Assembly: GCA_024336345.1 (NCBI GenBank)
Contig: JANFOG010000003.1
Span: 1,556,501 to 1,620,500, forward strand
DNA: 64,000 nucleotides
Direction of reading: 5' to 3'
From: Mariannaea sp. PMI_226
Lineage: Eukaryota > Ascomycota > Sordariomycetes > Hypocreales > Nectriaceae
A program made the position numbers and the translations under genes. The notes below the pieces were generated by a model that saw only the letters and a list, made by a program, of their open reading frames with translations, was not told the DNA's origin and ran no database searches. This document shows, one piece after another, positions 8,760-28,805 of this stretch; within the stretch, counting starts at the first letter, position 1; each line of letters opens with the position of its first letter.

Positions 8760-9517
8760 TTAGGCAACCTTGTTGGGGTTGTGGTAGTTGACCTTGTCGT
8801 TCCAGCTAGAAGAAAATTATTAGCAATCATGTACGTCGAGAGGGCGTCGTCGATTTGAGCGACGGATCGGAATAGCTTCGAGTCGCTCGACGACTATGGA
8901 GGGAAACTTACAAGAGAGTCTATTATGCCATTAGAAGCTTATCATACAATCAATTGGGTTGGGTATGTCAACTCACCTTGTCACCATCACCCCATTGGTA
9001 GTTCTTGGTTCGGATGTTCTGGTAAGGATACTCAGTGCGCTCCTCCAGAGGAGGCATGTGGCTCCAGTGGTCCCAATGCTCGTTCCACAGCCAGTAGGCG
9101 TTGGCACCAGCAATTGCGAGGGCAGGGATAACACCGCTTTATTCATGTTAGCAATATTCAATTGTGTCCACGGCCGTGGGGTTGATAGAGGTGGTCCTGG
9201 AACCTCCAGTCGTCCGAGTGCCCGAAATCGACGCAGGTAGGTAATTCACTCAATGGTGGTAGGGGTACGCACTAAGAAATCTTCTTCCAGAGCTCTGCGC
9301 ATCATTAGTAGTGAACTCAATGGAATCAATTGGGCTCTCTGAGCTCTAAAGTCTTCATCTACTCACCAGTAGTTCCTCGGGCGTGTTCCTTGATGTGCTC
9401 ACGTTCCTTGACGAAGGCGTTGTCGGTAGCAGAGCTGGCGAGACGGCGCTGAGCAGGAGCGCGGAGCTGCGCAGCGAAGCGCGGGACGGTGCGGGCAATC
9501 TGTCGGGCAGCAGACAT
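8760..9517 (-). CDS. cox13: Cytochrome c oxidase subunit 6A (Cox13)
   Basis: Five exons: 9367-9517, 9273-9294 (22 nt), 8977-9136, 8912-8919 (8 nt) and 8760-8805; product 128 residues. Introns are 72, 136, 57 and 106 bp, all GT-AG. The joined protein has a mitochondrial presequence (MSAARQIARTVPRFAAQLR). It continues through LWKKISY, one membrane helix (IPALAIAGANAYWLW), the subunit VIa signature NEHWDHW, and a C-terminus DKTLFWNDKVNYHNPN. The 8-nt microexon supplies Thr, Leu and part of Phe in that last motif; without it the conserved LFW cannot be made. The subunit sits in complex IV of the inner membrane. It lies head-to-head with apn2, the usual arrangement at MAT. Confidence 0.95.
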
Positions 9518-10089
9518 GGCGGGCGAGGTTGATCGTGGAGGTATTAAGAGAGAGCAGCAAGTTTGTGAGATCAGGTCATTCTGAATTGAGGTCGGCTAGA
9601 ACCGCCGATCAATGACACCTTAATTATGAGGCACTAATTTCTTTATCCTGTGATCCATAAACACGTGACCTCGTGCCATCCGCGCGAAACTCTTTGAAGG
9701 CAGCCTCGCGAGCGGGGCGCGAACGTCATTCAAGTCTGCAACGACCTTGAGTCCTTGAAAGCGCATTTACGCGCGCAGGTTTGGAATGTGAGACGTAGAA
9801 TCGGCTTGCATGAACAACTGCTTTCTTTCGCGCGGGTAAAGAGCCGAATAAAAAGCCTTATTGGCCTCTTTTCTCCTGCCAATGCCTCAGTCCCGTCTTA
9901 GGGCTAAGTTCTCTTGTGCTTCATAAGGCACAGCCTCGACACACTCGTCTACCAACTTCGCGATCTCCCTCTTCAACCACGAAATCTCCCTTTGAAATGA
10001 GGTGTGAAAAGTCAGGGAATTGCTCTGTTATGTTTTTGCATCTGTATCAGCCTCGCCTTGTGTAGAGAACCACAGTCCACTAAGTCGCG
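9518..10089. promoter_or_regulatory. Divergent promoter region cox13 / apn2
   Basis: A 572-bp segment between two divergent start codons. It holds several GCGCG-rich stretches (9690-9840) and pyrimidine tracts near the apn2 start. No defined factor site is claimed. Confidence 0.5.
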
Positions 10090-12206
10090 ATGCCTTTCCG
10101 GATCACAACTTGGAACGGTAAAGCCATTCTGCCCTTACCTGCTTTCAAACTTCCACTAATCAATTACTTCCAGTGAATGGCATCAGGTTCGTGTTTCTGT
10201 ACTGTTGATTACATCATCGTCTTGAGCTCTAGCTTACTTGTTTCATCTAGAAACCCATTTGGGTATCAGCCATGGAGGGAGAAGCGGACATTCCAAGTTG
10301 GTCACCTTTGCACCATCAGCTCTTGCCCCGTTTCCTAACTCATGTACTACTGCAGGCAATGTTTGAAATTCTAGAGGCGGACATTGTGGTGATGCAGGAA
10401 ACTAAAATCCAGAGGAAAGATTTGCGAGATGACATGGTTCTTGTGCCCGGGTGGGATGTCTTCTTCAGTTTACCCAAGCACAAAAAGGGTAACCATCCTG
10501 GATTCGGTCATTGACAAAATCTAACAGCACTTCTCTAGGATACTCTGGTGTTGCCATATACACACGTAACAGCACATGCGCGCCCATTCGAGCCGAGGAG
10601 GGAGTCACTGGCGTTCTGACCACCCCCAGATCCACCACAAGATACCGCGATCTTCCTCCTGAACAGCGAATTGGAGGCTATCCACGACCTGGTCAATTGG
10701 ATGGCGCCATTGATGAATCTATGTTAGACTCAGAAGGCCGCTGTGTGATTCTTGAATTCCCCGCATTTGTACTGCTTGGCGTGTACTGTCCGGCCAATCG
10801 AGATGAGTCCCGAGATGAGTTTCGCCTAGGTTTTCTCCAAGCACTGGACGTCCGGATCAGAAACCTGGCTGCAGAAGGGAAACAGGTTATCCTCATGGGT
10901 GATTTGAACATCATCCGCTCCGAAGCAGACTCGACCAACGTAATTGAGGCACTACGAAAAGACGGCATCAGTTTGGAGGACTGGATCAGTGCCCCCGCTC
11001 GTCGGCTGTTTAATCAGCTTATATTTGAAGGTGTGGTGATTGGACAAAGAGACGAAGGTCGAGAAATGCCTGTGCTCTGGGACTTATGCCGATGTTTCCA
11101 TCCTGGACGGGAGGGAATGAACACATGCTGGGATACAAAGCGAAACACACGCCCTGCCAACAATGGCAGCCGGATCGACTACGTGCTGTGTACTGACGGT
11201 ATAAAGAACTGGTTCTCATTTTCTAACATTCAAGAGGGTCTGATGGGGTCTGATCACTGTCCTGTCTTCGCCACCCTGGCAGATAGAGTGATGGTCAAGG
11301 AAGAAGAGCGAGACTTGCTAGAACTCATAAACCCTCCTGGTGTTTTCCATGATCAGCACCGTGTCCGCGCGTGGGAGCAAAAGGATCTACTTCCTTTATC
11401 TGCAAGGCTAATACCAGAATTCGACCGACGTCAGAGCATTCGCGATATGTTCACCAAGAAAGCGGCAAGCACAGATGCACGCGTGAAGTCGCCTGCTCCA
11501 ACGGAAACGGCATCTATAGGCCCCGAGTTTCGTGACGGTATGAGCAAAGCTCCGAACGACATGTCGAGCAGCACTGCAGCCACTCAGCTCATTCTCAAGC
11601 GGCCAGCAGGTGCACTCTCGCGGCCTTTGAAGAGAAGCAAGTCATCATCAGTGTCCGCTGAGAGCAAAAGCAAAGGGTCTCCAGGTCAACAAACGCTCCA
11701 GGGCTTCTTCAAACCGAAAGGCTCTGAATCTCAACAGGACAAGCCATCTATCATGGGGAGTGGACAACCTTCAAAAAACCTTTCACCACCACTCGAATCC
11801 ACAACCAGTCCATCAAAACAGCAACAGCTCGCAGCCCAGTCGTCCGGGACAGCCTCTGAGAATTTCTCGCCCAAGAACACGAAGCCCGAGGCATCTGAAA
11901 TGGTCTTTGACCCCATCCAGGCAAAGGAATCATGGTCAAGACTCCTCAGCAAGAGAGTGGCGCCTCGTTGTGAACACCACGAGCCATGCATAAGCCTCAC
12001 GACAAAGAAGCCTGGAGTTAACTGCGGTAAGTGCTTTGTTATTTCTATGTTCAACAGTAACCAACTAATTGGCCCATGCTACAGGACGCTCATTCTATAT
12101 ATGCCCTCGGCCGCTTGGCCCTTCCGGAGAGAAGGAGAAAGGATCTGAGTGGCGCTGCGGTACCTTCATCTGGAGTAGCGACTGGAATGGCTCGTCATCA
12201 CTGTAA
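10090..12206 (+). CDS. apn2: AP endonuclease 2 (class II abasic-site DNA lyase Apn2)
   Basis: Six exons: 10090-10117, 10174-10186 (13 nt), 10251-10296, 10356-10488, 10539-12026 and 12085-12206; product 609 residues. The N-terminus ITTWNVNGIRNPFGYQPW is the first motif of the exonuclease III/EEP fold and is only produced by splicing the 13-nt exon. Later motifs are QETKIQRKDL (metal-binding Glu), MGDLNI (catalytic Asp/Asn) and GSDHCPV (catalytic His). After a low-complexity linker, QTLQGFFKPK resembles a PCNA-binding box. A C-terminal GRF zinc finger follows, running from CEHHEPC to EWRCGTFIW. The enzyme cuts abasic sites and repairs 3' ends in the nucleus. It is the standard left-hand marker of MAT. 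Confidence 0.95.
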
Positions 12207-12947: not shown

Positions 12948-13692
12948 TCACTTAATCTTCCTTCTAGGCGAGTTCCACTTGTAATTTGGATATGCGAGCT
13001 TATGTTTACGATCCTCGTCATTGGCTTTCAACTGCCACTGGGCAATGACGGAGGGAGGTTCGTTCTTCCACATCTCAGAAACGATCGTCGCTATGATGTA
13101 CATCTTAGATCTCCACAAGATAATGGCATTCGTCTGTACGACAAGGAATAGAACTCACAAATCTCTGCCGCGGTGACATTTTGATGTCTCCGCAAAATCT
13201 CCGAGGCCTTCGCCTGTCGGTACAGAATCCATCTGTTGGGGGGCCGCGGGATACGAACAGATTGCGAGGTTTCAGAATAGATGGTTGTCTCGACTTCCTC
13301 GCTGCGTGTATGGGTCGTAAATCGTTCAGAACCACCTGTAGAAGTTGGTAAGCGTTGATGGCCATATGTTGAGAAGGGAAACCCAACCAGATTCGAAGAT
13401 AAACCTGCCGTGGTTCTTGTTTTCAAGTAGGATGCCAGTATTCAGTGGAGAGAGGCGATATCTTTCAGTCCTTTCATCATGGAAGGCTTGCACTGGTTGC
13501 TCGATAACGCGACTGGGAGAGTTAGCTTTGCCTTCATGCCACTCACTGATTCGCCAGATGGCAGCCTAACCTGAAATGATCCATGATCCTCTTGACAAGT
13601 TCGATTTGAATAGAGTCGTGGATAAAAAGATGAATATGGTCACTTTCTTCGGCCATAACGAAAGTCAATGGGTACTCAGGGAGGGCTTTCAT
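12948..13692 (-). CDS. MAT1-1-3: Mating-type HMG-box protein MAT1-1-3
   Basis: Four exons (13571-13692, 13388-13512, 13159-13335, 12948-13090) give 188 residues. Introns are 58, 52 and 68 bp. The start at 13692 is the first true ATG; the open frame upstream begins with TTG. The MATA-HMG box covers about residues 110-181, from IPRPPNRWILYRQAKASEIL to EDRKHKLAYPNYKW, with SEMWKNEPP between. The third intron splits the Ser codon of the box after its first base, the same place as in the MAT1-2-1 gene nearby. The NRWILYR form and the short product match MAT1-1-3 of Hypocreales rather than MAT1-2-1. It is expected to be a nuclear DNA-binding regulator of sexual development. It is the MAT gene nearest apn2, as in related MAT1-1 idiomorphs. 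Confidence 0.88.
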
Positions 13693-14094
13693 CGTCGCGG
13701 TTAATGGTGGAAAGATAAAGAGTGATGCGAAATTAAAAGAGAATGCGGGGAATTTAGCTGACTCAAATGTTTTACGCAAGCTGCTAACAGGTGTTGGCAG
13801 CTTTTAATCTCTCTACTGTTGTAGTCGCATCCCTAAACCATTCATGGACACTTTGCTGAGACTGTATCACAGCACACTTAGCTACCAAGGTCCATTACTA
13901 CCGAATAATCAAACATGTCAAATTTACTCGTAGAAAAGGTTCATTTATGAAGATGCACGTTAGGTATTCGATTACTACCTATCTTTTTTACCGTACCATG
14001 GAAACACGTATTTGACCATTCCTGAAACGCCACTGAATGCCAAACTCTCCCTCTCAGTATAGCAGCTTTGCTAGTTCATGCTCAGGTTTTGCAC
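13693..14094. promoter_or_regulatory. Upstream region of MAT1-1-3
   Basis: A 402-bp spacer between two MAT genes on the same strand. It presumably holds the MAT1-1-3 promoter and the MAT1-2-1 terminator. No distinct site recognised. Confidence 0.4.
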
Positions 14095-15001
14095 TTAAGC
14101 CTCGACAGACTTATCCTGGGTGGCGGAGGCAGTGACAGCGGTAGCACTAGCAGAGGACTCAGCAACAACGGCAGGCTCAGTGGGAGCAAGCTGAGTAGTG
14201 ACAGGCCCGGTGCTACCAGGCTGAGCAGAGTCAGTCACAATAAGAAGAGTGCGAGCAGTCTTACGCTTCTTCTTCTCAGAAGACTTGCGAGGCTTGTACT
14301 TGTAGTCAGGATGCGCCAGCATGAGTTTCTGCTTGGTCTCTTCGGCCTTGACTTTGTATTCCATGCGAACCGCGGGGTCCTCATCCTGCCAAGCACGACC
14401 AAGGATAATGGCTAGCAATATTAGTAAATTAAATGAGGTGCTGGAGAGGCAGTGAAATACATACAGACTTCATTGTTGGTGATCCAAGGCTGAGCTTGCT
14501 TGAGGAGCTTGTGGCGGTCTCCACGGTACAAAATGTACGCATTGGGAGGGCGCGGGATCTTGACGCACTTGGTGGGAATGGCGGGCGGAACAGTCAGAGC
14601 ATGTTGAAGGTTGTCGCTTGGGCGCTTGATCCAGATGGCCTCACCAGAAGCCTCATGGTTGATAAGCATTCCAGTACCAGCAAGGAAGAAGCGAGGAGGG
14701 CCGACGAAGTAACGGTCATCGCCAGTGCCATCACGGCAGATAATGACATCCTCTTTGACATGATCCCTGTAACATTGGCACTTAGCACGACGGAGGATCA
14801 AAAATGTGAGAGTCAAACTTACATGAACTTCTTAGCAAGAAAGAACTTGGTATTTTCGTCCAGCTTTCGAACGAAACTCCCTTCAAGAGAAAGAACAAAA
14901 CCGAAGGGATGAATCTGGGTCTCAAGTTTCTCCCAAGCAGCCTTCAACTCGTCTTGGGTGAGAACCGATCCTCCAGTGACAAGACCGAGCTGAGCAGACA
15001 T
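14095..15001 (-). CDS. MAT1-2-1: Mating-type HMG-box protein MAT1-2-1
   Basis: Three exons (14823-15001, 14465-14766, 14095-14411) give 265 residues, with introns of 56 and 53 bp. The start MSAQLGLVTGG at 15001 was chosen over an upstream frame extension that has no family-like sequence. The MATA-HMG box runs from about residue 129 (KIPRPPNAYILYR) through TNNEVSIILGRAWQDEDP to AHPDYKYKPRKSS. A basic SEKKKRKTAR tail follows, then a Thr/Ser/Ala-rich C-terminus. The PNAYILYR and PxYKYxPRxSS pattern is that of MAT1-2-1. The second intron splits the Ser codon 31 residues after the IPRPP Ile, the conserved intron of this gene. It is the defining gene of MAT1-2 and encodes the a-type regulator that controls pheromone and development genes. 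Confidence 0.93.
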
Positions 15002-15994
15002 CGCGTTGTTGGTTGACGTTGATTGAATGAAATGTGTGATGTGCTCGTGAAGTTGGAAGAGAGACAAGTTGGAGGTGCAAAAAGAAAACAAAGCATTCTT
15101 ATAATGAAGCTGATTTCTGGCTGCCAGCTGCTTCGCAGCTGTCAAGCTGGAATCGGTTTATTCCAACTAGCTATTGGATAGTTCCCTTTGTCAATAGACT
15201 CAAAATGACCGTTCAATAGGCTCAATAAAGCTTAGCCAACAACTCAATAAGCCACGCCACCACCCAATAAGAGCAGAAGCAAACGCCCCGTAACTTAACA
15301 TCGGGCACTGTGTGATCGTTTGGCCAACACACACGCCCCTCTCAAGCCGCCCTCACCCCTTAGCTATTGGGTCAGTAAAGTGAGCACGTACGTAGGAGAG
15401 CAGAAAGGGGGTGGAGTTTTAATCGCCTTTGAAGACATGGCATCCACACACTAGCCAAGCATATACGCACTCCTTACATTCGGATTCGTCAGGAAAATTC
15501 AGCGGTTCAACTTCACAGCAGGCAGGCTTAGAAGGGGCCCTGAACATATTGAGAAGATGGCGTCTATTTGGAGTAAACCACCAAGTGCCAAGTCCACCCA
15601 ACCTTAGTCGTTTAGCGCGACAAGATTGGATCATTCCGTTTGAAATTCTTTTGACGTGAGCCGGCGCCATCAGGCTTATTGACAACGAACTATTGAGGGT
15701 TTGGAAAACGATAGACAGTTGGCAAATTCGATACGCAAACCCAATGTGATTGCCTTGGTTCTGACCGAGGGAAGTCAGGTAGCCTTTTGTAGTCAAATAA
15801 AACCCTCCACCTCCCACCTCTCAAAGCAAAAGTTCTACCCCCTTCATCATCGCTCAATCTCTCCCTGGAAGCATCCAGCATTCTCGTCCTTTCAATCCCA
15901 TCTTCTCTCACACATCCTTCTAACGCCTCATTCTCATTCCCATAATCTCCATCCACTAGCTCTCTTCAAACCAATTCTGCGACTTGCAATATAA
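15002..15994. promoter_or_regulatory. Divergent region between MAT1-2-1 and the MBD-like MAT gene
   Basis: A 993-bp segment with two outward-facing MAT-core genes. A pyrimidine-rich stretch (about 15800-15960, many CTC/TCT runs) precedes the start at 15995 and resembles a fungal core promoter. Overlapping small frames here do not look coding. Confidence 0.5.
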
Positions 15995-16790
15995 ATGAGC
16001 AACATGGCAGGCAGCAACCCCAACGACAATAAGACTCCCGAATCTCCAGCGGACGCCATGGCCAGCACCATGTGGAGTTTTATTTCCGGTCCAGGGCTTG
16101 ACGATATTCACAATCCACGACCAGGCGGCTTCTGGCAGGCAGACGTTGCGACTCACGACGGTTTCATCCTCAAGTACTACTACTATCCCGTGGATAATTT
16201 CGTTCTTCAGAGTACAAGTCATCACTTCCGCCCGATGCGCACTCTCGAAGAAGTCAACAAGTATTCTCAGAACTGCATCTACAGATACCGGGCCGATGAT
16301 GCCAGTAAGCTTCGTCTCACCCTGAACGCTTTGATTTTGAGTCTCCTAGTTCCAGATGTCTAACTAGATTGAATGAACAGATCTACATCCGGTCCCTCAA
16401 AATAATGAGGGTTTCCCTCCATCTGTTCCCAGTGATGGTGCTGTTCACCTCACACAACCTGCAACGTTTGAGGTTAGCTATCGCTATGATACCCCACCTG
16501 ACTTCAACACTACTGCCACAAACTCGGATCTACCGGTCTCGCCATTTCCCATGCAGACCCAGTTCATTCAACCAGGTTCCATGGTTGTCAACCAGTTCGT
16601 TCAACATCCACAGCAAGCCGGCACCCAGGCTCCCGCTTTGACATCAAATCAGAACGCCAGCTTCCACGGTCCTGCAATAGGCGTCAATCACCAGACCGTG
16701 TCTCACAACTGGGCTCAACTTCAGTTTACACCTCATAATCAGCAAAATCAAGCTGATCAGAATAATTATGCTGATCGAATGAATCACTGA
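15995..16790 (+). CDS. Unrecognised MAT-core protein with MBD/TAM-like N-terminal segment
   Basis: Exons 15995-16304 and 16381-16790 flank a 76-bp intron (GTAAGC donor, CTAACT branch point, ACAG acceptor) and encode 239 residues. I do not recognise the gene by name. Residues 42-92 (PGGFWQAD, then FILKYYYYPVDN, then FRPMRTLEEVNKY) follow the order of a methyl-CpG-binding (MBD/TAM) domain: PxGW, YYxxP, FRSxxEVxxY. The match is by eye and includes an extra loop. The rest is low in charge and Pro/Thr/Gln/Asn-rich, ending in a Q/N-rich tail. Its position divergent from MAT1-2-1 makes a sex-related role likely. Accessory MAT1-2 genes of unknown function (MAT1-2-3, MAT1-2-12 and others) are known in Hypocreales, and this may be one. 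I cannot assign it. Confidence 0.72.
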
Positions 16791-17382
16791 AGTTCCTGCC
16801 AAGCTGCTAATAAACTAATTGCCATCATCAGCCAAAGGTACTGAAGTATGCAACTCTTCTCATCATTATGTGATCTAGCTAATATCTTGCCGGGCCTGAA
16901 GACGCTGACTCGGAAGTGTATGACAATCGATCCGATTTCCATTTTATGGGTCCAATCTAAGAGTGACCGACATATGCTCAAGTGTTTGTGGAGGGGTGAA
17001 TGGAATAGTATCAGGAATTCGGGAGGGTGGACATACCACATCGCACAACATTTCAGAAACTGGATGATGGATCGTGGGGCTCGCAGGACTTCACAAGGTT
17101 TCTGAAGGAGGAGTTTGGGGGGGTTGGTTCATTTCAGTAGCTCTTCACGAACAAATTGAAACGTTATCGTTTCCACAGAATGATTCTTTGTTTCTGTGAC
17201 ATGTCTTCATTCGCCTGAGGGGGGACTCCTCTCCTTCTCTCTTGGTCAAACCAGACTCCAAAGATGGAAAGGCGAAAAAAGAACAAAATTAAACAACACC
17301 GCGATGTGTTGATATTGAATGAAAGTCAAAAGCGTTTGTTATTTATCCAGCTACCTAACTGCTTTAAGCGCTTCCCTACTCT
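16791..17382. other. Intergenic between convergent MAT genes
   Basis: The 3' ends of the MBD-like gene and the MAT1-1-2-like gene face each other here. No feature is seen beyond A/T-rich stretches that could serve as 3' processing signals. Confidence 0.5.
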
Positions 17383-18813
17383 TTACCCATTCCTGCTCTC
17401 GTCTCTGAATCCCATCTTCGAGATGATCCTCTTCAGTCGCTCGCCTAACCTAGGCACCAACGTGCTGTACACCTTCTCCTGCTCTTTTGGCTGAGCCTCC
17501 TGCTCATGGCCGACCTGCGGACGCTCAAAGGAAATGGCGTAGATGGCAACTAGCCGCGAGTTGAGTTGGTTAGCTGCGGCTGGGGACATGAAGGCCGTCT
17601 GCCAAAGCAGCGACTGCTTGCATGGCCAATCGAGGAAAGCGTCCCGAAGCACGGGCATGTCCCTCCCATGAATGATGTCGGGGTAGTCTCTAGTGTCCTG
17701 CTGATGAATATGCTTTAGATCGTGCTCCCAAATTGCACGAGGAGGTGAGGTCGAAGCTTTTGTGGGCCGTAGCTGTTGTCGACTTGGTCGCCACGAGAAG
17801 ACAGTATGGCGCCAGTCTAGCTCTTTTCCTTCCGCAATGGTGAAGCTAGTCAGCCCAGGAGGCGCTGGTTGGTCAGGGTGGAACTTGAGGAGCAGGACGC
17901 CGTGGAAGGTTTGGCCCCTCATCTGGAACGAATCCGTCAGAGCCCGACCCGCAGTTTTGTCCAAGCAGTGGTAGAGGATTTCAGCCTTGAAGGCAGCCCA
18001 CAGGAAGGATCGCAAGGCTGAGAAGGATGTGTAGATGCCAGACAGGTGACCGTCGTCGGGGAAAAACGTCGTCTTGCCCGGCACGCGGCGGAATGTGGAT
18101 GGGTTCGTGGACAAGTAGTGCTCGATAGTCCTTGCATGTTGCAGATACTCGTGCTGGATAGCCATGCCGCGATAAACCGGGGCCCCGCCTGCAACGGACG
18201 GCGACCAGGCTTGCGGCTCGGCGAGTGACCCCATCCCCATCCCCATCGCGGGCATGTCGTCGACGGCGCCGCCGCCCCCACCTCCACCACCACTACTGCA
18301 GCGGCTCGTCCACCAAGCCGTCTTCAAGCAGGAACCAGACAGCTTGATCTGCTCAATGGGCACCGGCGGTTGTGAGGAGGGACAGCAAGGGTGGCTTACG
18401 CTTGCGTACTCCCAATCCCATTGCGGGCACGCCCACCTGTCCATGACCTCTCTGCTGTGGTGCTGAATGGCATGCTCAACAAGCAAGCAGGTCCAGTCTA
18501 GCACCGACTTCTCGGTGAGAAAGGCATCGGAGAGAGAGTCGCCGCAGGTGATGTCGAAGCCCGTAAACTTGCCCCGTAGATGGGTCAGGAAGCAGTCACT
18601 AAAGATGCAAGCTGTGGTAGACAGGAAGCCGTCAACCCCGGAGGGAATCTGGTCCGCCTGATCTCTGCAGCTCGCCGACTCGAACACGCGCTCAATGGCA
18701 GCATCTGTGCAGGCCTCTCGATAACCAGCCTGGATGGTGGGAAAGGCGTCCAAGGTGAACAAGGCCCTGACCTCATCCAAGACGGCATCGTCTAGATGGG
18801 CTGGAACGTACAT
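17383..18813 (-). CDS. MAT1-1-2: MAT1-1-2-like mating-type protein
   Basis: A continuous frame of 476 codons starts at ATG 18813. I assign MAT1-1-2 from position and from a C-terminal pattern resembling the PPF/HPG region. This includes LLKFHPDQPAPPGLTSF, DWRHTVFSWRP, DYPDIIHGRDMPVLRDAF and DWPCKQSLLWQTAFMSP. MAT1-1-2 occurs only in Sordariomycetes, and its loss causes sterility in several species. Two points are odd. A perfect donor (GTAAGC) and acceptor (GAGCAG) enclose 51 bp at 18349-18399 without breaking the frame, so an intron there would shorten the product by 17 residues. A run of glycines is encoded near 18265-18295. A Met-Ser-Ala reading with a GTAAGT donor just upstream (about 18915-18935) could not be joined in frame. 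The identity is less certain than for the HMG genes. Confidence 0.7.
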   Translation of the reverse strand: MYVPAHLDDAVLDEVRALFTLDAFPTIQAGYREACTDAAIERVFESASCRDQADQIPSGVDGFLSTTACIFSDCFLTHLRGKFTGFDITCGDSLSDAFLTEKSVLDWTCLLVEHAIQHHSREVMDRWACPQWDWEYASVSHPCCPSSQPPVPIEQIKLSGSCLKTAWWTSRCSSGGGGGGGGAVDDMPAMGMGMGSLAEPQAWSPSVAGGAPVYRGMAIQHEYLQHARTIEHYLSTNPSTFRRVPGKTTFFPDDGHLSGIYTSFSALRSFLWAAFKAEILYHCLDKTAGRALTDSFQMRGQTFHGVLLLKFHPDQPAPPGLTSFTIAEGKELDWRHTVFSWRPSRQQLRPTKASTSPPRAIWEHDLKHIHQQDTRDYPDIIHGRDMPVLRDAFLDWPCKQSLLWQTAFMSPAAANQLNSRLVAIYAISFERPQVGHEQEAQPKEQEKVYSTLVPRLGERLKRIISKMGFRDESRNG

Positions 18814-21800
18814 GGGCGACTTAGTGCCCTTAACTCAGAGAAAGAGTTAGCCTTGGGGGCCCATGGCCATTGTCAATAGGCAACAATTGAACCAGAAGGG
18901 GGAAAGACAATGGACTTACGTCACGCCAGCGGACATCTACACTCTTTTTTTTTTGTGGTCTTTCTTTCTAGACTAACTAACTAGATGAGCTTGGTCTCGT
19001 CTTGACGGGTTTCGACGACCGGCGACAAGCCAGGGGGAGAAAGGGGGAAAGGTGAGGGCGACGTTGTCGACGCAAATGGAAAAAAAATGGCGAGGGAGGC
19101 TTGGGTTTATTCAAGGGCGAGATGCTTGCTCCGGGGTTGCCAAAGGGAGTGGCAGCCAGGCAGGCGACAGTGGACCATTGATGGGGTACAGAGCCCGCAT
19201 AATGTTGCCGTAGTGCAGTGTGCAGCAAACAGTATCTATTAGCGTGTGCAGGACTTGCAGATCTCATCCAGAAGGAGAATTTTGGAGAAGGGAGCCTTAC
19301 CCGCGTGCGTCCATGTGGCCGTGGTCGTTGTCGTGGTCGTGGTTGCGATTGATATCAAGCCAGGGCCACGGATTGCATCCGTCTGGTTGCCCACAATTTC
19401 CTTCCTTCTATGGCATTTCCAAATGATTAGTTATTCCTCTTCCACACTCCTCCTCGCCTCGCGCTCTCCCATCTCACCCTTCATCCTCTCATCCTCGTCC
19501 GCCTCCCAGCCAGTGCCAAAAATGCTAATCGCCCACATGCCACTTCTGACCCGCGAATAGAAAGGGCGGGGTAGTAGCCAACAGTACGTACCTTGGTACC
19601 TTGAGCATGTAGCTTTCTCTCCTCTTTTTACTTATCCCACTCCCCTTTTACACACCCCCGTCCTTCTGGTCGTTTGACATGTGCTCCACTCTCGCAACCT
19701 CGTTGGCCTTCTTATTGACAAACGAACCAACGAACCAACGAACCAACAAGCGGGCTATTTATTGAACAGTTTGGTGCTTGGTTTGCAGCTGTGATTCACC
19801 CTCGGGCTCCAAACAACAACGGCTCAATCCCTCTTGTGCCAAACGGAATTCTTATTGACGAACCACGCTCTCTAATTGGCCAGTTTGGTTTGGAGGGCAC
19901 CCCGTTTGCGCAAGGCACACAGTGTGATCCGAGACGCTTCGAGATGCGGGTGAGGGGGGTTGGATCATCATCAATATCAGCTCTGTCTGTGCGGCGGCCA
20001 GCCTCACGGCCCTCAGCGCTGCGAGGTTGGATCGAACGCAACAAATCCAGAAATCCAGGGTAACTTTCCCTTGCAGAAAAGCTTCGTGTTGGCCGATACC
20101 AACCATGCAGAGTCCCTGGTCAAGTTTCTCTTGAGTATTATCAGATGTGTCTCAGATGTGTCTTTATATTCGATATTCGTTCTGTTGCGTGAATGTTCCT
20201 GCATTTCAACAGATGCCTCACATCGCACACGCAAAATCAAGTATTTGTATCTGTCAAACTTGCGCTCGAACTGGGAATCAGCAGTGTTCAACCGGCTCCC
20301 ACGTTGTGCACTGGCCGCATGCTACATACGTAGCAGCAAGGAAACAGGAAGGGTCAAAGAGAGGAGTCGTAATGAGGAATGTGCTTCAGGGGCGCTTCTC
20401 CCGTGCGCCATGGAGGCAGGGCTTGTCTAGCTTGTGCAGAAGCCATGCCGCACTAAGGGCGATTAGGGTCCAGGCCAAAAACGGGAAGCGATTTGTCTCA
20501 ATTGAAGGTTGTGATGGTAGCAGTCAAGTAAATGGTGGTGCTCTTGTGGTGGGCCTCACATCCGCCCTACAGGGTCGGGTGATCTGCCCTCACCGATGTA
20601 CTACATACTGGGCGCTGAAGAAAGCGTTTGGGAGGTCTCCTTGAAGAGTGGCACGCAACATCGGAGATGTCATCCTTGGGGTCCAAGATGCAAGATTCAG
20701 AATGGACCACATCCCACCAATTGCGGGGGCAGCATCGGCAACGCCCTCACTATTGAAGTGGCCAACCAGGGGCTCTCGGAAATCGCCGCCGACGGAAAGA
20801 TTAAAGTACAGGCTTTGATTCGCGCTCATCCGTGCCGTCACCCACGCGCACTCTCGCCAAACGCTTGCTTTCAGCTGCAATGCAATGTGCATGCTCCAGT
20901 GGCCTTGCTCCATCCAAGAAGGACACTTCAAGATCAGGAGGGAACACGAGGACACTGGGCATCGAGAATTCAAATCGCCCAATCTGGTGATGCTTACCAG
21001 CCCCATCCTCCGCCCACGGGCAATGAAAGTTCTTTGATGTTGTGTCCTGTCTCTCCACACGGTTGCGGGTGCGCACGATAACCTCCAATTTGGATGGTAT
21101 ACACGGTTCAACATGTATGTACTCCAAGCATTCGCCAACACTTAGTTACGCGACGAAAATACATATTCCAAAATCCAGGCAGGACGTTAGTCGTTTTCGA
21201 TGAGAGGATACAAGAGGACTTTGCAGCTTATTATTTCGCTGATCTTCCATACGACATCTAAGGCCTAAAGATGCTATAACTAGTACAGGGACAGGGCAGA
21301 CAGCCAGGAAGCTGACATTGCGGGTAACAAAAACAAATTGCTTGGATTCTGCGCATTGGCGCATTGGCGTGACAGCCTATTTCTCCTTACCTAAGCCAAA
21401 AATCACTTCAACTGCCGAGTGTGGGTGGGCCAGGTCAAAACGGTGCGGGGCTCGGGAACTTGACGATCTGCCTAGACGGGGCTGAGAAGGAGCACACAAA
21501 AAGACAAGTACGTACTCAACTACTGTACTGCTGCGTGCACCGAATGTAGGTACGTGCTTCAATTAATTGGTGCTGTGGGTCTCTCCATCTCCAACGACGC
21601 CACACTGGCTGGGCTTGGAATGCGGAAGGCGGAAGACGGCCAGCATTCTTGGCAGGAAGGTTATCTACTTCATCAAGAAGAAAAGCCAGGTTGATGACTG
21701 TTGTCGTTAGTTTTCTTTTTCGCATAGCCATTTCCGAAAGTACTCACACTCCTTTACTGGCTTCAGCGAATTAGGAATGCCGAATTTTTGGTGCTTGTGG

Positions 21801-24228
21801 GAATCCTGCCGCTGAAGGTGGTGAGACTTCCGTTGGTGTAATTGGGCATCCTGTCAACACCGAATGTGCATAAACAGACCTAACCTCACCGTGATCCGTA
21901 TTTCGTGCAAAACTACTCGCTAAAAAAGAAGGCTCGACTAGAGTATTAGAAGCAAATCATGGACTAATTTTTTTACCAATATTATCATAAAGGGGATTTC
22001 ATGAAACGTCGAGGAGACGAACTAATTGCTTGTCTGCCCATTGAACCGCCTACTACCCTGTACCTACGACGTGCCTTTGTCCTGCCAGAACAGACTGCAC
22101 TAGCGATACTTTTAGTCTAGCCCGCTCTGGCTCTTGACTTGTGTGTGTGTGTGCGTGTGGCACCAAAACCCTAATCAGATAGCGAGTAATCTGTACGTTC
22201 CTTCACAATCACCAATCAGCAACACAAATTGCGACCCAATTTGACTTCCTACGTTCCGATTCGGGAGCCTCACGAGATCTATCAACCGTTATAGTGACAT
22301 AACGATAACTCCATGCACAAGGCGATTAAACTGTACAACAAATTGCCTTCACTAGCACGTGTTACTGTGCTGTAGTGCCGCAGTTCTGTTGAGAGTTCCA
22401 TTCCATGACACGCCCTACCTACTTTCCTTCAGTGAACTGGAAGGTGTATTCTAAAGACGCCTGTGACACGGACCGTTGAAGGATCGATGCGTTGCTCTTC
22501 ACACCGAGTGGCAACAAGTTCATCTGGTGATTTTGTCAGGGCGACGCCTTTTTACGACCGGTCCAATCCCGGAATCGTCATTCCAACACATTCTTCTTCA
22601 TCTCACCTCCCCGTAGCCGCCAGCCCGTTGTTCGGGATTGGATGCCAACTTTACCACCTGCCTTACCCAAGGCATAAGCGAGAAGCTGAGGTACTTGAAA
22701 ACCTACATTGCATTTCGGACGGTTCGTATTTCGTACTTGATACGCAAGCCTCCCGTTTTCTTCTTCTTAGCACTGCACTGTAAACCTTCAAAATTAGATA
22801 TAAAAATCAACCGAACTTAGTTGGATCCCATGCACAAGGCAACAAACTTGCACTCTAACTTAATGAGAATGAGACGAAAAGTGGACACGCCTTCTGCCGC
22901 AGAAGCAGCCTCAAATCGTCTACGGGGTACAGTACCCTTTGCAATGACTTGCAAGGCACACCACACCCTACATTAATAAATGAATTTCCAAGCTGGGAGG
23001 CCCGCGAACAACAGCGGAAGTATCCGGCACCGACTGCCACCGTCGGCGGGGCGGACCTGGCAGAGGGATTGTACAACATGGGAGGGCCATTGGGTTGAGC
23101 CATTGAGGTAAATCCCCTAACGCTAGATACAGAGAGAGAGAGATGGGATGGGGTCACGATCACGGGTGTGTATTGCAAAGCAGAGGCGGCGAGTCAACAA
23201 GACTATGGTGACGAAGGTGAAGGCAACTATCTTGGGGAACAAAGACAGGATAAAGAAAATATGAGACGGTGCTGGACATGAATCACACAGTTCCCTTTTC
23301 TTTCTTCCTTCCTTCCTTTCTTCTTTTCTTTCACGTATCTTGCGCAACTAATGGCCCTTCCTTAGTGCGATTTCCTTGTTGAGGCATGTCCATAATATGC
23401 TGGCTGGTCATCCACCCTCGCCTTAAGGCTAAGACGACGAAAGAGGATGCTAGGGTATGAACAGACCAAGAGTCGCTGCCAAATCCGACGAGATGGTGGG
23501 GAGGGAAAGGGAGCCAGCGAACGGTTTATTTCTGATTCAAGTGGGTGTGTCGTTGGTGTTGCGGGAGGAGAAGAGGAGAGGAGTGTGGCTGCACTAATTG
23601 ATAACTAACTGATGCAGGGTCCAGCCCGAAAAAAAAAAGAATAGACGGCTGTCTTGACCCTGGAAGCACGGCTGGGGAGAAAGGGAGGGGGAGGGGGATC
23701 GAGATTGGAGATTGGGCTGAAGCATACTAGTTGAGCTGACATGGACGCCTTTCTACTTTTTCTCGCCAATCATGGATTGTGTGGCTTGAAGCCTGTGACG
23801 ATGCCCTCACGACTAAAAACTAAAACCGCCCACCTAATAAGACATCCTCCTACTAGCACTTCACAGCGGCTCTCGCAAACTCTCGTCATCACCGACCCTT
23901 TCGTCGCAACTTGACTGAACTCTGAATCTCTCCCCCCCCTTCTTCGTGAACGCATGATGCAAAATGGCGGTGTATGTATATCACACTCACTCAGAGGAGG
24001 CGCAATAGCTTCCCTGGACGAATATATTCTTCAAAACGAGGAGCCAGAGGCCATCTCCGAAAGGAGGGATGTGAGGGGCCGCGTATTAAAGCCAATAGAA
24101 CATATAGGAGTACAGTAGTACACCTCCCCCTTTCTCCCTCACCCCTTTCCGTCCAACCAACAGCCATCGGATGGCCTGCATCAAACCCCTAGCTCCTTTT
24201 TCTTGAGCAGCGCCAACTATCCCCGCCC
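18814..24228. other. Gene-free 5.4-kb segment between MAT1-1-2 and sla2
   Basis: In other Sordariomycetes this side of MAT carries MAT1-1-1. I searched all frames by eye and found no alpha-box (no N-S-F-M-x-F-R-x-Y-Y-like run) and no convincing multi-exon gene. Frames of 150-180 codons near 20.0-21.1 kb overlap on both strands and lack recognisable sequence. The segment holds a CGAACCAA direct repeat (about 19722-19748), a GT-rich microsatellite (22141-22160) and an AG-rich tract (23130-23142). It includes the sla2 3' region. Confidence 0.6.
19722..19748. repeat. Short CGAACCAA tandem repeat
   Basis: Three consecutive copies of an 8-bp unit (CGAACCAA), the last slightly altered. Related single copies follow downstream (19858-19864). 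It is a small minisatellite with no function seen. Confidence 0.7.
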
Positions 24229-27200
24229 CTACTCTTCCTGGTAAGACAACTTTCTCATCTCTCCTAGACGATGTCGTGCTGACGCCAGCGCGTTCTCCAG
24301 TTGGAGGATCTCGACCTGTTGTTGAAAGCACTGTGTTAGCTTCTTCTAGTTCTTCCTTGGTTCTACTGGACGGGAGGTAGCCGCCGACGGCCCCCGCCTC
24401 CACGTTTGAACTCACCTGTTGCTCCATCTCCCGCACCTTGAATTCGTGCGCCCCCAGCTTCGAGTAGTCCACCTGGTCGTCCTCCTGGTTGCGTTCCTTA
24501 ATCATGCTTTGTACTTGTCGAACCAGCGCTCGGCAAGCCGCTCCCACTGCCTTGCTGGCCTGCTCCAGCTTCTCCTGGCTCTTAGACATGAAGCCGGCCT
24601 TGACACGGCTGGCCGCAACGAGTTGTGCTGTGGATGCCGCCACATCGTTTGAGGCCACGATTAGCTGCTCTGGACTGTTGCGGTTCGAGATGACGCCGTC
24701 CGCCGTCTCGATGAGTGTGTTGGTAGACGATGCCACTGCCTTGGAGGCCGAGATGAGACCTTCCGTCCACCTGTTGTTCTTCTTGTAAAAGGCCGTGCGA
24801 GACGATGATCCGCGACCGGCCTGCACAATCTCTTGCTGTGACAGAGTTGCGGCCTGGATAAGTTGAGTAATTGCGTTGGTAATGGCGGTGGCCGCGTCCA
24901 GGATCGAGTCGTGAACCTTGAGCTCGTAGGTAGAGTAGCCATCGCGAGGCTTGTTCTTGAGCTTGGCCAGTCGCGCAGCCGCTGCAGCAATGGCGTCGGC
25001 TGCCTTGCTCAGTTCCTGGTCGACAAGGTCGCCCAAATCTCCCTTCTTGTTGATGAGCTTGCCGAAGCCGGGTGCAAAGGTCTCAACGAGCTTGTTCAGC
25101 TTCTGCAGGTTCATCTGCACATCGTTGTTGCTGTTGATGACCACATCCGTCTTCTGCAGAGGATCCATTCCCTCGAGTCGGAAGCTCTGCAGTCCGCGGA
25201 AGAACTGCACCGTAGACTGCGCAGACTGTCGTGCGCCGCTCATCAGGCCGTCCGTCTTCTTGTCATCCGTTGCTAGACGTGAAAGACCCTTGGTGTTGCT
25301 GCATACATCCGCGATAGCTCCTGAAAAGACGTTGATGTTCTTGATCAGCTCGGCATGAGTGCTGTTGGGACCATCGGCGATGAAGTTGTTAAAGGAAGTA
25401 GCAAACTCCATGGCACTGGCTGATGCCTTCTCGATCTGCGAAAGAACGTATGAAGGGGATGCGTTCTGGTTACCGGCCTGCATAGATGAGTCCAGCTCGT
25501 AGAGCGCATCGTCGACACGCGCGACGCCAGCCTGGAGAACGGAGTCAATGATGTCGTTGATCTTTTCGAGGCTGGACATAATGAGAGCGTCAATTTGCCC
25601 ATCCAGAGCATGGTCCGTTTCGCCTTGATTCTGCTGGAGCTCGCTCAGCTCCAGTAGAGTCTGGTCCATGCCAGCCTTGTAGACCTCAAGCTCCTCCTCC
25701 TTTTCGCGGAGAAGCTGCTCGAGATCGGAGCCGCCGTCTCGAAGCTTTGCATGAGCATCTTCCAGAGCACGCGACTTGTTGCGGAGGGCCTCCTCCAGGT
25801 CGGCCATCTCACGGTTGTACTTGGCCAACATGGTCGAGAGCTCATTACCCTTGCTGCGCTCCAAATTGTCAGCCCGGTCCATGGCCATACGAAGCTCCCG
25901 CTTGAGCTTCTCGACCTCATCCTTGTTACTACCGCTGAGACGGTCCTTGTCGTGCATCGCACGGTCGCGCTCGCGAATCATGTCGGCCAGCTCCAGATTC
26001 TTGGTCTTGATTTCCCTCTCCAACTTCTCCCGCCGCTCGATCGCCTCTTGAGCACTCGCGGCCTTGAGTTGAACCGACTTGAACTTCTGGAGAAGATCGA
26101 GATGTTCGTGTCGAAGTTGAGAGTACAGCTTGGCTAGAGCTTCGTATTTGGTGCGCCATGTGTTCACCTGCTCCTGCAGTGCCTTGATCTGGTCATCCTT
26201 GCTCGACATCTGCTGCCCGAGGCTGTTCTGAATCTGGCCCAGCTCGCTCTCCAGAGCCTTGACACGCTGGTCGTACTGCTGGAGCATAAGTTGATCTCGT
26301 TCGTACTGTGCTCGGGCGTTCAAGTTTTCTCGCTCCAGCTCAGCCAAACGGCCTTGAGTCTGCCACTGCGCTTGCTGGGCGAGCAGTGCCTCCTGCTCTC
26401 GCTTCTGTTGCTCCATCAAAGCACGCTGCTGCTCATCAAACTCTCGTTGTGCCTGTAGCTGAGCTTGCTGCTGCGCCAACAGCGCCTGTTGCTGGCGTTC
26501 CTCAAGGACTCGTTGCTGCTCTTCATACTCGCGGTTTTGGCGATCCAGCTCGCTCTTCCAGAATTCAGACATTTCGTCTGGTTCTTCATTCTTGGGCTGA
26601 GGGAGAGGGGAGGGCTTGCGTTCAATTTCTTGCTTGGGTCGGGCGGGGAGAGCAGGGGCATCGTCGTCTTCGGCTAGGAGATTCGGGGGATCTTGAGGAA
26701 GCTTCGGGATTGTAATCAGGCTAGTAAGATATCGTAGGTTGGCGCACTCGTAGTAAAACTTGACGAGGCGGTAATGCTGAGCATTATACCGCTCCCGGAG
26801 GGGCTCCAGGGCATCGTCATCGCCAGTCACTACTAACTTTTAGTACTTTGTGATCGGTGCCACGGAATACAGCGAAGTAGACTACTGACTGGAATGCATG
26901 GCACGCAGCATGCTGGTAATAAACTTGTAGATACCATAGCTTTCCTGGACCAGAGGGACCAGTGCGGCAATGCGGCATTCGTTGTTTCCAACATTGCGGA
27001 AGTGGGAGAAGATTAGTTTTTGGAACTGCTCGATCTTATCTTGCAGCACCATAAGGTCGCTAATGGTCTCGTAACCCTCATTAGGGTCATTGATGGCCTT
27101 GAGACTAATGTATTCCTCGTATTCGAACGTGCCGTTGAACTCGGGGTGCTGGTGATGGAACGATAGCTTTGCGAGCAGGTAGTAGACGTATTCATTAATT

Positions 27201-27672
27201 AAAGGTCCGTAGCCGCGCATTCCTTCACCCGACATCCCCCGGTTGAGGCTGTCGATCCAACCGCGGTTCGCCATTGCCTCCTTCAGAGCACTGGGGTGGC
27301 CTTCCTGAAGAACTTTATGGATAGTAATAAGGGCTTTAAAGGTCTGGACTTCGTCGGCAAGGATCGGTTGACTGTTATGAGTAGGAATGTAAGCAAGAGT
27401 TGGACGCAGAATAGATTGCATCACCGGTTCGACATACACCTTGATGCCAGCCCAGAAGGCCGTGGAGGATCTGTGATCCCATGTATAAACAATACAAGCT
27501 CGGACATGCTTGCGCTTGGGGGAGATCTCTTCGGGATTTGTGGCTTTCTTAATGTTAATGGCAAGCTCCTGATCGGACCTGCGCAAAGCCAAGGTTAGCT
27601 TCCTCTCTGTGCAGCGCAACAGTGAATCAAGGCCACGAACTTGGTGTGTTCCATGCCACGCACAGCTGCCAT
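24229..27672 (-). CDS. sla2: Sla2/End4 endocytic actin adaptor
   Basis: Four exons (27641-27672, 26890-27578, 24416-26829, 24229-24315) give 1073 residues; introns are 62, 60 and 100 bp. Exon 1 is only 32 nt. The ANTH lipid-binding domain covers about residues 12-280 (ELAINIKKATNPEE, then RACIVYTWDHRSS). A long Gln/Glu-rich coiled coil follows (about 340-620). The C-terminus is an I/LWEQ talin-like actin-binding domain ending in HEFKVREMEQQVEILQLENA and RHRLGEMRKL. The last exon was preferred to reading through the intron because only splicing gives this family-typical tail. Sla2 links clathrin-coated membranes to actin at endocytic sites and is the standard right-hand marker of MAT. The ATG at 27654 is an alternative start. 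Confidence 0.95.
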
Positions 27673-28805
27673 GGTTACTGTTCTGGGCGGAAGAGCTCCG
27701 CGGGGCTATTGCAGAGAATGGTGTGTGTAAATTGTCTCTGAGGGGGAGAGGGGAGTTGCTTGTTGAGGGACGAGCCCCTGGATCTCACGATACGACAGAC
27801 GTGGTCCGACGCCGCCGGTGGGGGAAGAATGCAGAGCACAAGGAGGGTATAACAATAGGAGGACAGAAAATCAGACGGAGATGCGCCTCAAAAGTAACGA
27901 AGTGCAGTGCCCAACGCAGTGGGTTGAGTTGTCGTCAGCGGGTGACAAATAATTCAGGCTGCTTGCTTGGCCTTGAGAGTGCGACACTTGGCAGTGGCTG
28001 GACGGCGATGTAGAAATAGAGAGGCGCGCGTCATATGGGTACGTATCTCCGTTCTCCTCCCGTCGGCGAACTGCACTGAATGTGGGAACCTGCTCCTTGA
28101 GCTGCCTAACTGATGGTGGAGTAAGATATAACTACGTAATATTTCGTGGCGCGGAGCCGGTAGGAGTATTATCCGGTTGGCGAATTCGAAAAGGTAGGTA
28201 GGGGAGGTGGGCAATGATTAGTCTACAGGGCATTATTCAATTATTAGGAAATGAGAGGATTGAGAAATTTCCCAGTACATGCGATGATATACGATGCATT
28301 CACATATTACTTGCATAGAGAGGGGACGGCTGGTTAGTCTTTTAGGGCGACAGAATCAGGGTCCTAACTTAGACGATTGACTCCAATGTCTGAAAATAAT
28401 TATGAGACATGGAGCAGGGAGTAACGAAAAAGACACAGGTTTGATACCTCAACCTCATCTGCAATACAAGACATCAACTCAATGCACGCGCAGGATTTTC
28501 ATCATTCATATCCTAAGCCCCAGGTATTGGATAGTATTTGATTTGCTTTGGAAGCTGGGCCTTGGAATCAGCCAAGGCGATACACGCGGGTCAACGCTTC
28601 GGCACCAAGTAACATCGGACATATGTCACAGTAAAAATTCATCCAATAAAAGATGATAGGTATTCTTTTGTTCCCAGCGATGTCATTCGGTCTCATTGCC
28701 TATGGACATCAAAATGTAAGTCCTTGCCATGTAGAGTTCTTTCCCATCCGGACGCAACACCCCAAGCAAAAAGAAGCAAGCACCACACAATCCCACAGAA
28801 GCTTT
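27673..28805. other. Intergenic, sla2 promoter and rpl21 3' side
   Basis: Over 1.1 kb without a supported gene. The first 300 bp must include the sla2 promoter. Short open frames in the segment show no recognisable similarity. Confidence 0.55.

What the first reader, a model, noticed from the sequence alone, without database searches (positions are those of the whole stretch)
12948..18813. MAT locus with genes of both mating types but no alpha-box gene
Seen: MAT1-1-3 and MAT1-2-1 HMG genes and a MAT1-1-2-like gene lie in tandem between apn2 and sla2. No alpha-box (MAT1-1-1) is found in any frame. Known: in heterothallic Sordariomycetes MAT1-1-x and MAT1-2-1 lie on alternative idiomorphs; in homothallic ones they are joined, normally with MAT1-1-1. 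Inference: this is a fused locus that has lost or moved MAT1-1-1. If the fungus is self-fertile, it selfs without a linked alpha-box gene; if not, the locus is a relic of homothallism.
Basis: partly seen in the sequence, partly recalled or inferred. Interest (0 to 1): 0.88.

Follow-up and report, generated by a model that had tools for sequence, protein, structure and literature searches.

The report
MAT1-2 locus with extra HMG gene
This is the mating-type locus of a fungus (Mariannaea) that looks like an ordinary single mating type carrying one extra regulator gene, rather than a self-fertile locus that lost its main gene.

Summary
The genome is Mariannaea sp. PMI_226 (Hypocreales, Nectriaceae). 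Between APN2 and SLA2 lie, in order, an intact 188-aa HMG-box gene in the MAT1-1-3 position, an intact 265-aa MAT1-2-1, a 239-aa gene in the place of MAT1-2-9, and a 476-aa gene. The last was called MAT1-1-2-like, but it is not MAT1-1-2: it fails the MAT1-1-2 profile, has a paralog on another contig, and its model resembles ADP-ribosyltransferase folds (weak). No alpha-box was found in the window or in the 42.2-Mb assembly, and no MAT1-1-2 either, so nothing suggests that MAT1-1-1 'moved'. The simplest reading is the MAT1-2 idiomorph of a putatively heterothallic fungus that carries a MAT1-1-3-like HMG gene. MAT1-2 idiomorphs carrying MAT1-1-3 homologs are known from Diaporthe and Magnaporthe. 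Intact MAT1-1-3 plus MAT1-2-1 without MAT1-1-1 is in print for Hymenoscyphus herbarum. Open points: true orthology of the HMG gene to MAT1-1-3 (a diverged MAT1-2-1 duplicate is not excluded), and whether the fungus selfs. Known kind, perhaps unreported in Nectriaceae; modest interest.

The parts
9359..9595 (-). reading frame that holds part of COX13 (COX6A family), left flank
   Evidence: PF02046 20.6 bits over 31 residues of one exon, below its cut-off of 25
10090..12206 (+). APN2 (DNA lyase), left border gene of the MAT locus
   Evidence: PF03372 49.1 bits in the 10493-12148 frame; start and stop codon read, introns not modelled
12948..13692 (-). HMG-box gene, 4 exons, 188 aa, next to APN2: MAT1-1-3 candidate (or diverged MAT1-2-1 paralog)
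   Evidence: gene model; identical to NCBI protein of Mariannaea sp. PMI_226; PF00505 53.2 bits
14095..15001 (-). MAT1-2-1, 3 exons, 265 aa, intact
   Evidence: both halves of the HMG box match PF00505; no second copy in the assembly
15995..16790 (+). 239-aa gene, 2 exons, divergent from MAT1-2-1; MAT1-2-9 candidate by position only
   Evidence: gene model; no Pfam match at E 0.1
17383..18813 (-). 476-aa single-exon gene, not MAT1-1-2; member of a small fungal family, possible ADP-ribosyltransferase fold
18900..24080 (.). stretch without a recognisable gene or alpha-box remnant, where MAT1-1-1 would lie in a MAT1-1 arrangement; 18900-23900 has no other match in the assembly
24086..27784 (-). 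SLA2 (two long frames; its 5' end not traced), right border gene
   Evidence: PF01608 165.3 bits, PF07651 213.8 bits

Best explanation
The locus is the MAT1-2 idiomorph of a putatively heterothallic Mariannaea strain. It carries MAT1-2-1, probably a MAT1-2-9-like gene, and in addition an intact HMG-box gene of MAT1-1-3 type between APN2 and MAT1-2-1. How it most likely works: MAT1-2-1 sets the MAT1-2 identity, and the strain mates with a partner that carries MAT1-1-1. The MAT1-1-3-type HMG protein is either shared by both mating types (it lies at the APN2 edge, so the idiomorph border may run between it and MAT1-2-1) or was captured from the MAT1-1 side by an unequal exchange. Shown: gene content, intact frames, no alpha-box and no MAT1-1-2 found in the assembly. 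Inferred: heterothallism, orthology of the HMG gene to MAT1-1-3, and the exchange.
For: No alpha-box in the window and none above the cut-off in the assembly; no MAT1-1-2 match. The same genome search does find the split HMG exons of both MAT genes and both pheromone receptors STE2 and STE3, so it is not blind to split genes. MAT1-2-1 is intact and without a second copy. The supposed MAT1-1-2 is another protein family with a paralog elsewhere. Fusarium oxysporum, also Nectriaceae (recalled), has MAT1-2-1 and MAT1-2-9 in MAT1-2 (PMC13097639, passages). Nalanthamala psidii, Nectriaceae, has a MAT1-1 locus with MAT1-1-1, -2 and -3 and no MAT1-2 gene (PMC8914235, passages). MAT1-2 idiomorphs with MAT1-1-3 homologs are described in heterothallic Diaporthe (PMC5386874) and Magnaporthe oryzae (PMC8539793; PMC3583454).
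Against: Only one strain was available, so heterothallism was not observed. The alpha-box proteins used are, as far as named, Sordariales, Magnaporthales and more distant fungi; none of the 71 hits shows a Hypocreales name, and no fungal genome was at hand as a control (0 of 14 control genomes ring). An assembly gap could hide a second locus. The 188-aa protein found no relative but its own record (33 candidates only), so its naming as MAT1-1-3 is by position, size and domain.
Confidence: 0.74

Rival explanations
1. The upstream HMG gene is not MAT1-1-3 but an old tandem duplicate of MAT1-2-1, that is, a MAT1-2-specific second HMG gene. Then no gene of the other mating type is present at all. 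(This overlaps with the best explanation: the strain is MAT1-2 in both.)
For: Its HMG box scores best against MAT1-2-1 among the ten other HMG boxes of the assembly compared (139; next 135). The N-terminal halves also align (score 53; 3 of 20,000 shuffles reach it; best of 81 other proteins 45). Both genes have an intron at the same serine codon and phase of the box. Same strand, tandem.
Against: MAT1-2-1 itself scores better with a third HMG box of the assembly, at C1 (149), than with this one (139), and the box is only 26 of 70 identical, so the pair is not specially close. The shared intron is, from recall, common to mating-type HMG genes in general. The introns upstream of the box are not at the same place. 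188 aa and 265 aa are close to the lengths given for MAT1-1-3 (171 aa, Grosmannia clavigera) and MAT1-2-1 (263 aa, Ophiostoma montium) in PMC3583454.
Confidence: 0.2
2. Relic of homothallism: a once fused locus that has lost MAT1-1-1 and MAT1-1-2 and now acts as MAT1-2 or not at all.
For: A MAT1-1-3-position gene beside MAT1-2-1 and 5 kb of gene-free DNA where MAT1-1-1 would be expected. Tsui et al. discuss a homothallic ancestor as one way to explain MAT1-1 pieces in MAT1-2 loci (PMC3583454, passage).
Against: No alpha-box trace, no MAT1-1-2, no flanking repeats, GC of the gap 0.47-0.54, not AT-rich. The MAT frames that remain are intact.
Confidence: 0.1
3. Self-fertility by two HMG proteins alone: MAT1-1-3 and MAT1-2-1 together replace the alpha-box regulator.
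For: Both genes are intact; both pheromone receptors are kept. In Lachnellula, MAT1-1 isolates carry only MAT1-1-3, and an HMG x HMG system was proposed (PMC10569646, passages).
Against: No fertility data. Lachnellula keeps the two genes in separate strains. A MAT1-2 strain explains the same genes with less.
Confidence: 0.06
4. Assembly artefact joining two idiomorphs.
Against: The window is one piece of one contig, C19:1556501-1620500; the other MAT1-1 genes are not found in the assembly; the 188-aa gene, MAT1-2-1 and the gap sequence have no second copy.
Confidence: 0.02

Closest known systems
MAT1-2 idiomorph of heterothallic Fusarium and Clonostachys (Hypocreales)
   Same: MAT1-2-1 plus a second small gene (MAT1-2-9); no MAT1-1 gene in the same strain; in Clonostachys between apn2 and sla2 (PMC13097639; PMC13401452; passages)
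   Different: here an extra HMG gene lies between APN2 and MAT1-2-1, and an unrelated 476-aa gene lies towards SLA2
MAT1-2 idiomorphs of Diaporthe and of Magnaporthe oryzae
   Same: a MAT1-1-3 homolog sits in the MAT1-2 idiomorph of a heterothallic fungus (PMC5386874; PMC8539793; PMC3583454; passages)
   Different: Diaporthe also has MAT1-1-2 there; in M. oryzae the copy (MAT1-2-2) is called largely identical to MAT1-1-3 by one paper and partially homologous by another, and is not needed for mating
Hymenoscyphus herbarum MAT gene set (Leotiomycetes)
   Same: intact MAT1-1-3 and MAT1-2-1, no MAT1-1-1 (PMC10569646, passage)
   Different: another class; its authors left its sexual capability open; linkage was not stated in the passage seen
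Lachnellula MAT1-1 idiomorph
   Same: MAT1-1-3 without an intact MAT1-1-1 (PMC10569646, passage)
   Different: there MAT1-2-1 is in other strains and a MAT1-1-1 remnant is visible

Membership tests
Fused (homothallic) MAT locus of Sordariomycetes | MAT1-1-1 with alpha-box present in the genome | tested here: not met
   at most 3.7 bits in the window, 17.4 bits (below cut-off) in the assembly; no fungal control genome
Fused (homothallic) MAT locus of Sordariomycetes | MAT1-2-1 present and intact | tested here: met
Fused (homothallic) MAT locus of Sordariomycetes | self-fertility | not testable with these tools
   sequence only, one strain
Heterothallic MAT1-2 idiomorph (Hypocreales) | MAT1-2-1 between APN2 and SLA2 | tested here: met
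Heterothallic MAT1-2 idiomorph (Hypocreales) | MAT1-1-1 and MAT1-1-2 absent from the same genome | tested here: met
   limits: no fungal control genome, assembly of 25 contigs
Heterothallic MAT1-2 idiomorph (Hypocreales) | no MAT1-1 gene at the locus | tested here: inconclusive
   the 188-aa HMG gene may be MAT1-1-3; no reference sequence could be reached
Heterothallic MAT1-2 idiomorph (Hypocreales) | MAT1-2-9 beside MAT1-2-1 | tested here: inconclusive
   a 239-aa gene without known domain lies there; sequence kinship not tested
Heterothallic MAT1-2 idiomorph (Hypocreales) | isolates of the opposite mating type in the species | not testable with these tools
   one genome
MAT1-1-3 | HMG box of the mating-type kind | tested here: met
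   PF00505 53.2 bits; of ten other HMG boxes of the assembly its best matches are MAT1-2-1 (139), one at C1 (135) and one at C20 (74), the rest 59 or less
MAT1-1-3 | orthology with MAT1-1-3 of related fungi | tested here: inconclusive
   only its own record found
MAT1-1-2 (PF17043), for the 17383-18813 gene | match to the MAT1-1-2 profile | tested here: not met
   no match at E 10; P0052, which has the domain, scores 72.8 bits; direct comparison with P0052 E 0.36
ADP-ribosyltransferase fold, for the 17383-18813 gene | structural match of the predicted model | tested here: inconclusive

The most novel reading that the evidence does not exclude
A Nectriaceae fungus that completes its sexual cycle alone with two HMG regulators, a MAT1-1-3-type protein and MAT1-2-1, encoded side by side, and with no alpha-box gene in its genome: an alpha-box-free, HMG-only homothallic locus in Sordariomycetes.
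Probability: 0.06. Interest if true: 0.85.

Novelty: new member of a known kind. Interest (0 to 1): 0.3.

Why it matters
If the upstream gene is MAT1-1-3, this adds a Nectriaceae case to the MAT1-2 loci that carry a MAT1-1 gene. It would then be a simple system to ask what MAT1-1-3 does outside MAT1-1 and where idiomorph borders lie. It also warns against calling homothallism from MAT1-1-3 plus MAT1-2-1 alone. Only proof of selfing would make it surprising.

Tried and rejected
Considered and rejected: (1) MAT1-1-2 identity of the 476-aa gene. (2) An alpha-box hidden at 18.8-24.2 kb: profile search of all frames; tblastn of 71 MAT1-1-1 proteins against 8-28 kb, where of the 15 best-scoring hits printed the only two below E 0.02 are the HMG part of one composite protein (P0048) on the two HMG genes; Pfam scans of 6 longer frames there, none with a match over a cut-off. 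A 3' fragment of MAT1-1-1 without its alpha-box cannot be excluded, for lack of a near relative. (3) Direct-repeat loss of mating-type DNA as in Chromocrea spinulosa (PMC5608430, passages): of the two repeat families of 20 bases or more found, neither flanks the MAT1-2 genes. (4) Decayed, AT-rich DNA: lowest GC of any 1-kb step from 9 to 26 kb is 0.45.

Led nowhere: the protein search with the 188-aa gene returned only itself. Foldseek against solved structures found nothing at E 0.001. The separately folded domain of the 476-aa gene had mean pLDDT 48.7 and was not searched further. A first HMG comparison mixed up strands of five loci and was redone. Paper searches for Mariannaea with mating type, genome or sexual-morph terms listed 4, 1 and 3 papers; by title none treats the MAT locus of Mariannaea; none of them was opened. 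Papers named in this report were seen as passages found by term, and PMC13401452 also as abstract; none was read whole. PMC6562746 and PMC3199270 were looked at and PMC3730723 without deciding anything.
Full report
What the sequence is. The window lies in a 42.2-Mb assembly of 25 contigs, at C19:1556501-1620500. The hand-made model of the gene next to APN2 matches over all 188 residues an NCBI protein of Mariannaea sp. PMI_226, on a contig of the same length (4,370,929) as the one that holds the window's own 476-aa gene. A second NCBI protein of that strain, P0005, is encoded by the C12 paralog locus of this assembly. Mariannaea is a genus of Nectriaceae, Hypocreales.

Anatomy. From left to right: a frame with part of COX13 (minus), APN2 (plus, about 10090-12206), an HMG gene (minus, 13692-12948, 4 exons, 188 aa), MAT1-2-1 (minus, 15001-14095, 3 exons, 265 aa), a 239-aa two-exon gene (plus, 15995-16790), a 476-aa one-exon gene (minus, 18813-17383), 5 kb without a recognisable gene, and SLA2 (minus, from about 24.1 kb). 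Both HMG genes are open throughout, with GT-AG introns, and both have an intron in the same serine codon and phase of the box. The Pfam HMG score of the 188-aa product is 53.2 bits.

Alpha-box. A profile of 20 of them scored at most 3.7 bits in the 2,533 stop-to-stop pieces (15 aa or more) of the window. With each protein left out in turn, its best 60-aa piece scored 67 to 139 bits and its third best at least 44. Over the assembly, PF04769 gave no match at E 0.001 and one at E 0.04 (17.4 bits) on a 556-aa frame at C20 that has a full HMG box (49.9 bits for PF00505). Pyricularia MAT1-1-1 found nothing. The search engine does recover genes split by introns here: both MAT HMG genes, in halves, one half below the cut-off, and STE2 and STE3, each in two pieces. 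The weakness is the lack of a fungal control genome (0 of 14 control genomes ring for PF04769 and PF17043) and of Hypocreales among the named alpha-box proteins. A Nectriaceae alpha-box that scores like those of other orders would have been seen; that is inference.

The HMG gene next to APN2. Position beside APN2, length (171 aa is given for the Grosmannia clavigera MAT1-1-3 protein, and 263 aa for Ophiostoma montium MAT1-2-1; PMC3583454, passages) and a mating-type HMG box speak for MAT1-1-3. That MAT1-1-3 is the APN2-side gene in Sordariomycetes is mostly from recall. Valsa mali has MAT1-1-3 next to APN2 (PMC5386874), but there APN2 itself has moved into the locus. Against certainty: the search with this protein had only 33 candidates and returned its own record. 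Its box is 26 of 70 identical to MAT1-2-1, and its best partner among ten other HMG boxes of the assembly is MAT1-2-1 (139), closely followed by one at C1 (135); MAT1-2-1 in turn scores higher with the C1 box (149). Its N-terminal half also aligns with that of MAT1-2-1 (3 of 20,000 shuffles reach the score). An old duplicate of MAT1-2-1 is therefore a live rival.

Reading. With MAT1-2-1 intact and without a second copy, MAT1-1-1 and MAT1-1-2 not found, and both pheromone receptors kept, the strain looks like one mating type, MAT1-2, of an outcrossing fungus. In Nectriaceae the other type is documented for Nalanthamala psidii (MAT1-1-1, -2, -3, no MAT1-2; PMC8914235; family) and both types for Fusarium oxysporum (PMC13097639). 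What remains unusual is a MAT1-1-3-type gene in the MAT1-2 locus. This is known elsewhere: Diaporthe MAT1-2 carries MAT1-1-2 and MAT1-1-3 homologs (PMC5386874; PMC3583454), and M. oryzae MAT1-2-2 is described as largely identical to MAT1-1-3 and dispensable (PMC8539793) or as partially homologous (PMC3583454). The set MAT1-1-3 + MAT1-2-1 without MAT1-1-1 is in print for Hymenoscyphus herbarum, and a MAT1-1-3-only MAT1-1 for Lachnellula (PMC10569646). In the five papers listed by a search for Nectriaceae with MAT1-1-3 (two of them opened by term, PMC8914235 and PMC6568001) I saw no such case for the family, which is a limited check.

Homothallism. A fused origin is not excluded but nothing calls for it: no alpha-box trace, no MAT1-1-2, no flanking repeats, no AT-rich decay. 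Heterothallic MAT1-2 strains of other groups likewise keep MAT1-1 fragments or genes, put down to unequal exchange or, in another view discussed there, to a homothallic ancestor (PMC3583454). Whether this fungus selfs cannot be told from sequence.

The odds of the rivals overlap with the main one where both make the strain MAT1-2.

Noticed in passing
window 17383-18813 (-); assembly C12:209765-211018 and C19:1553417-1553587: A small uncharacterised fungal protein family with an HGT...YTSFSALRSFLW-type motif, a full paralog on another contig and a fragment with one stop 2.9 kb left of the window; weak structural likeness to ADP-ribosyltransferase folds.
   Followed up: partly
protein P0048 (Immersiella caudata, 382 aa): One annotated protein holds both an HMG box (63.5 bits) and an alpha-box (194.6 bits): a fused gene model or a real fusion of two mating-type domains.
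   Followed up: no
protein P0052 (Mycothermus thermophilus, 582 aa): One annotated protein holds both a MAT1-1-2 domain and an alpha-box; probably two neighbouring genes merged in annotation.
   Followed up: no
window 15995-16790 (+): 239-aa two-exon gene divergent from MAT1-2-1 with no Pfam match at E 0.1; candidate MAT1-2-9, not compared with references.
   Followed up: partly
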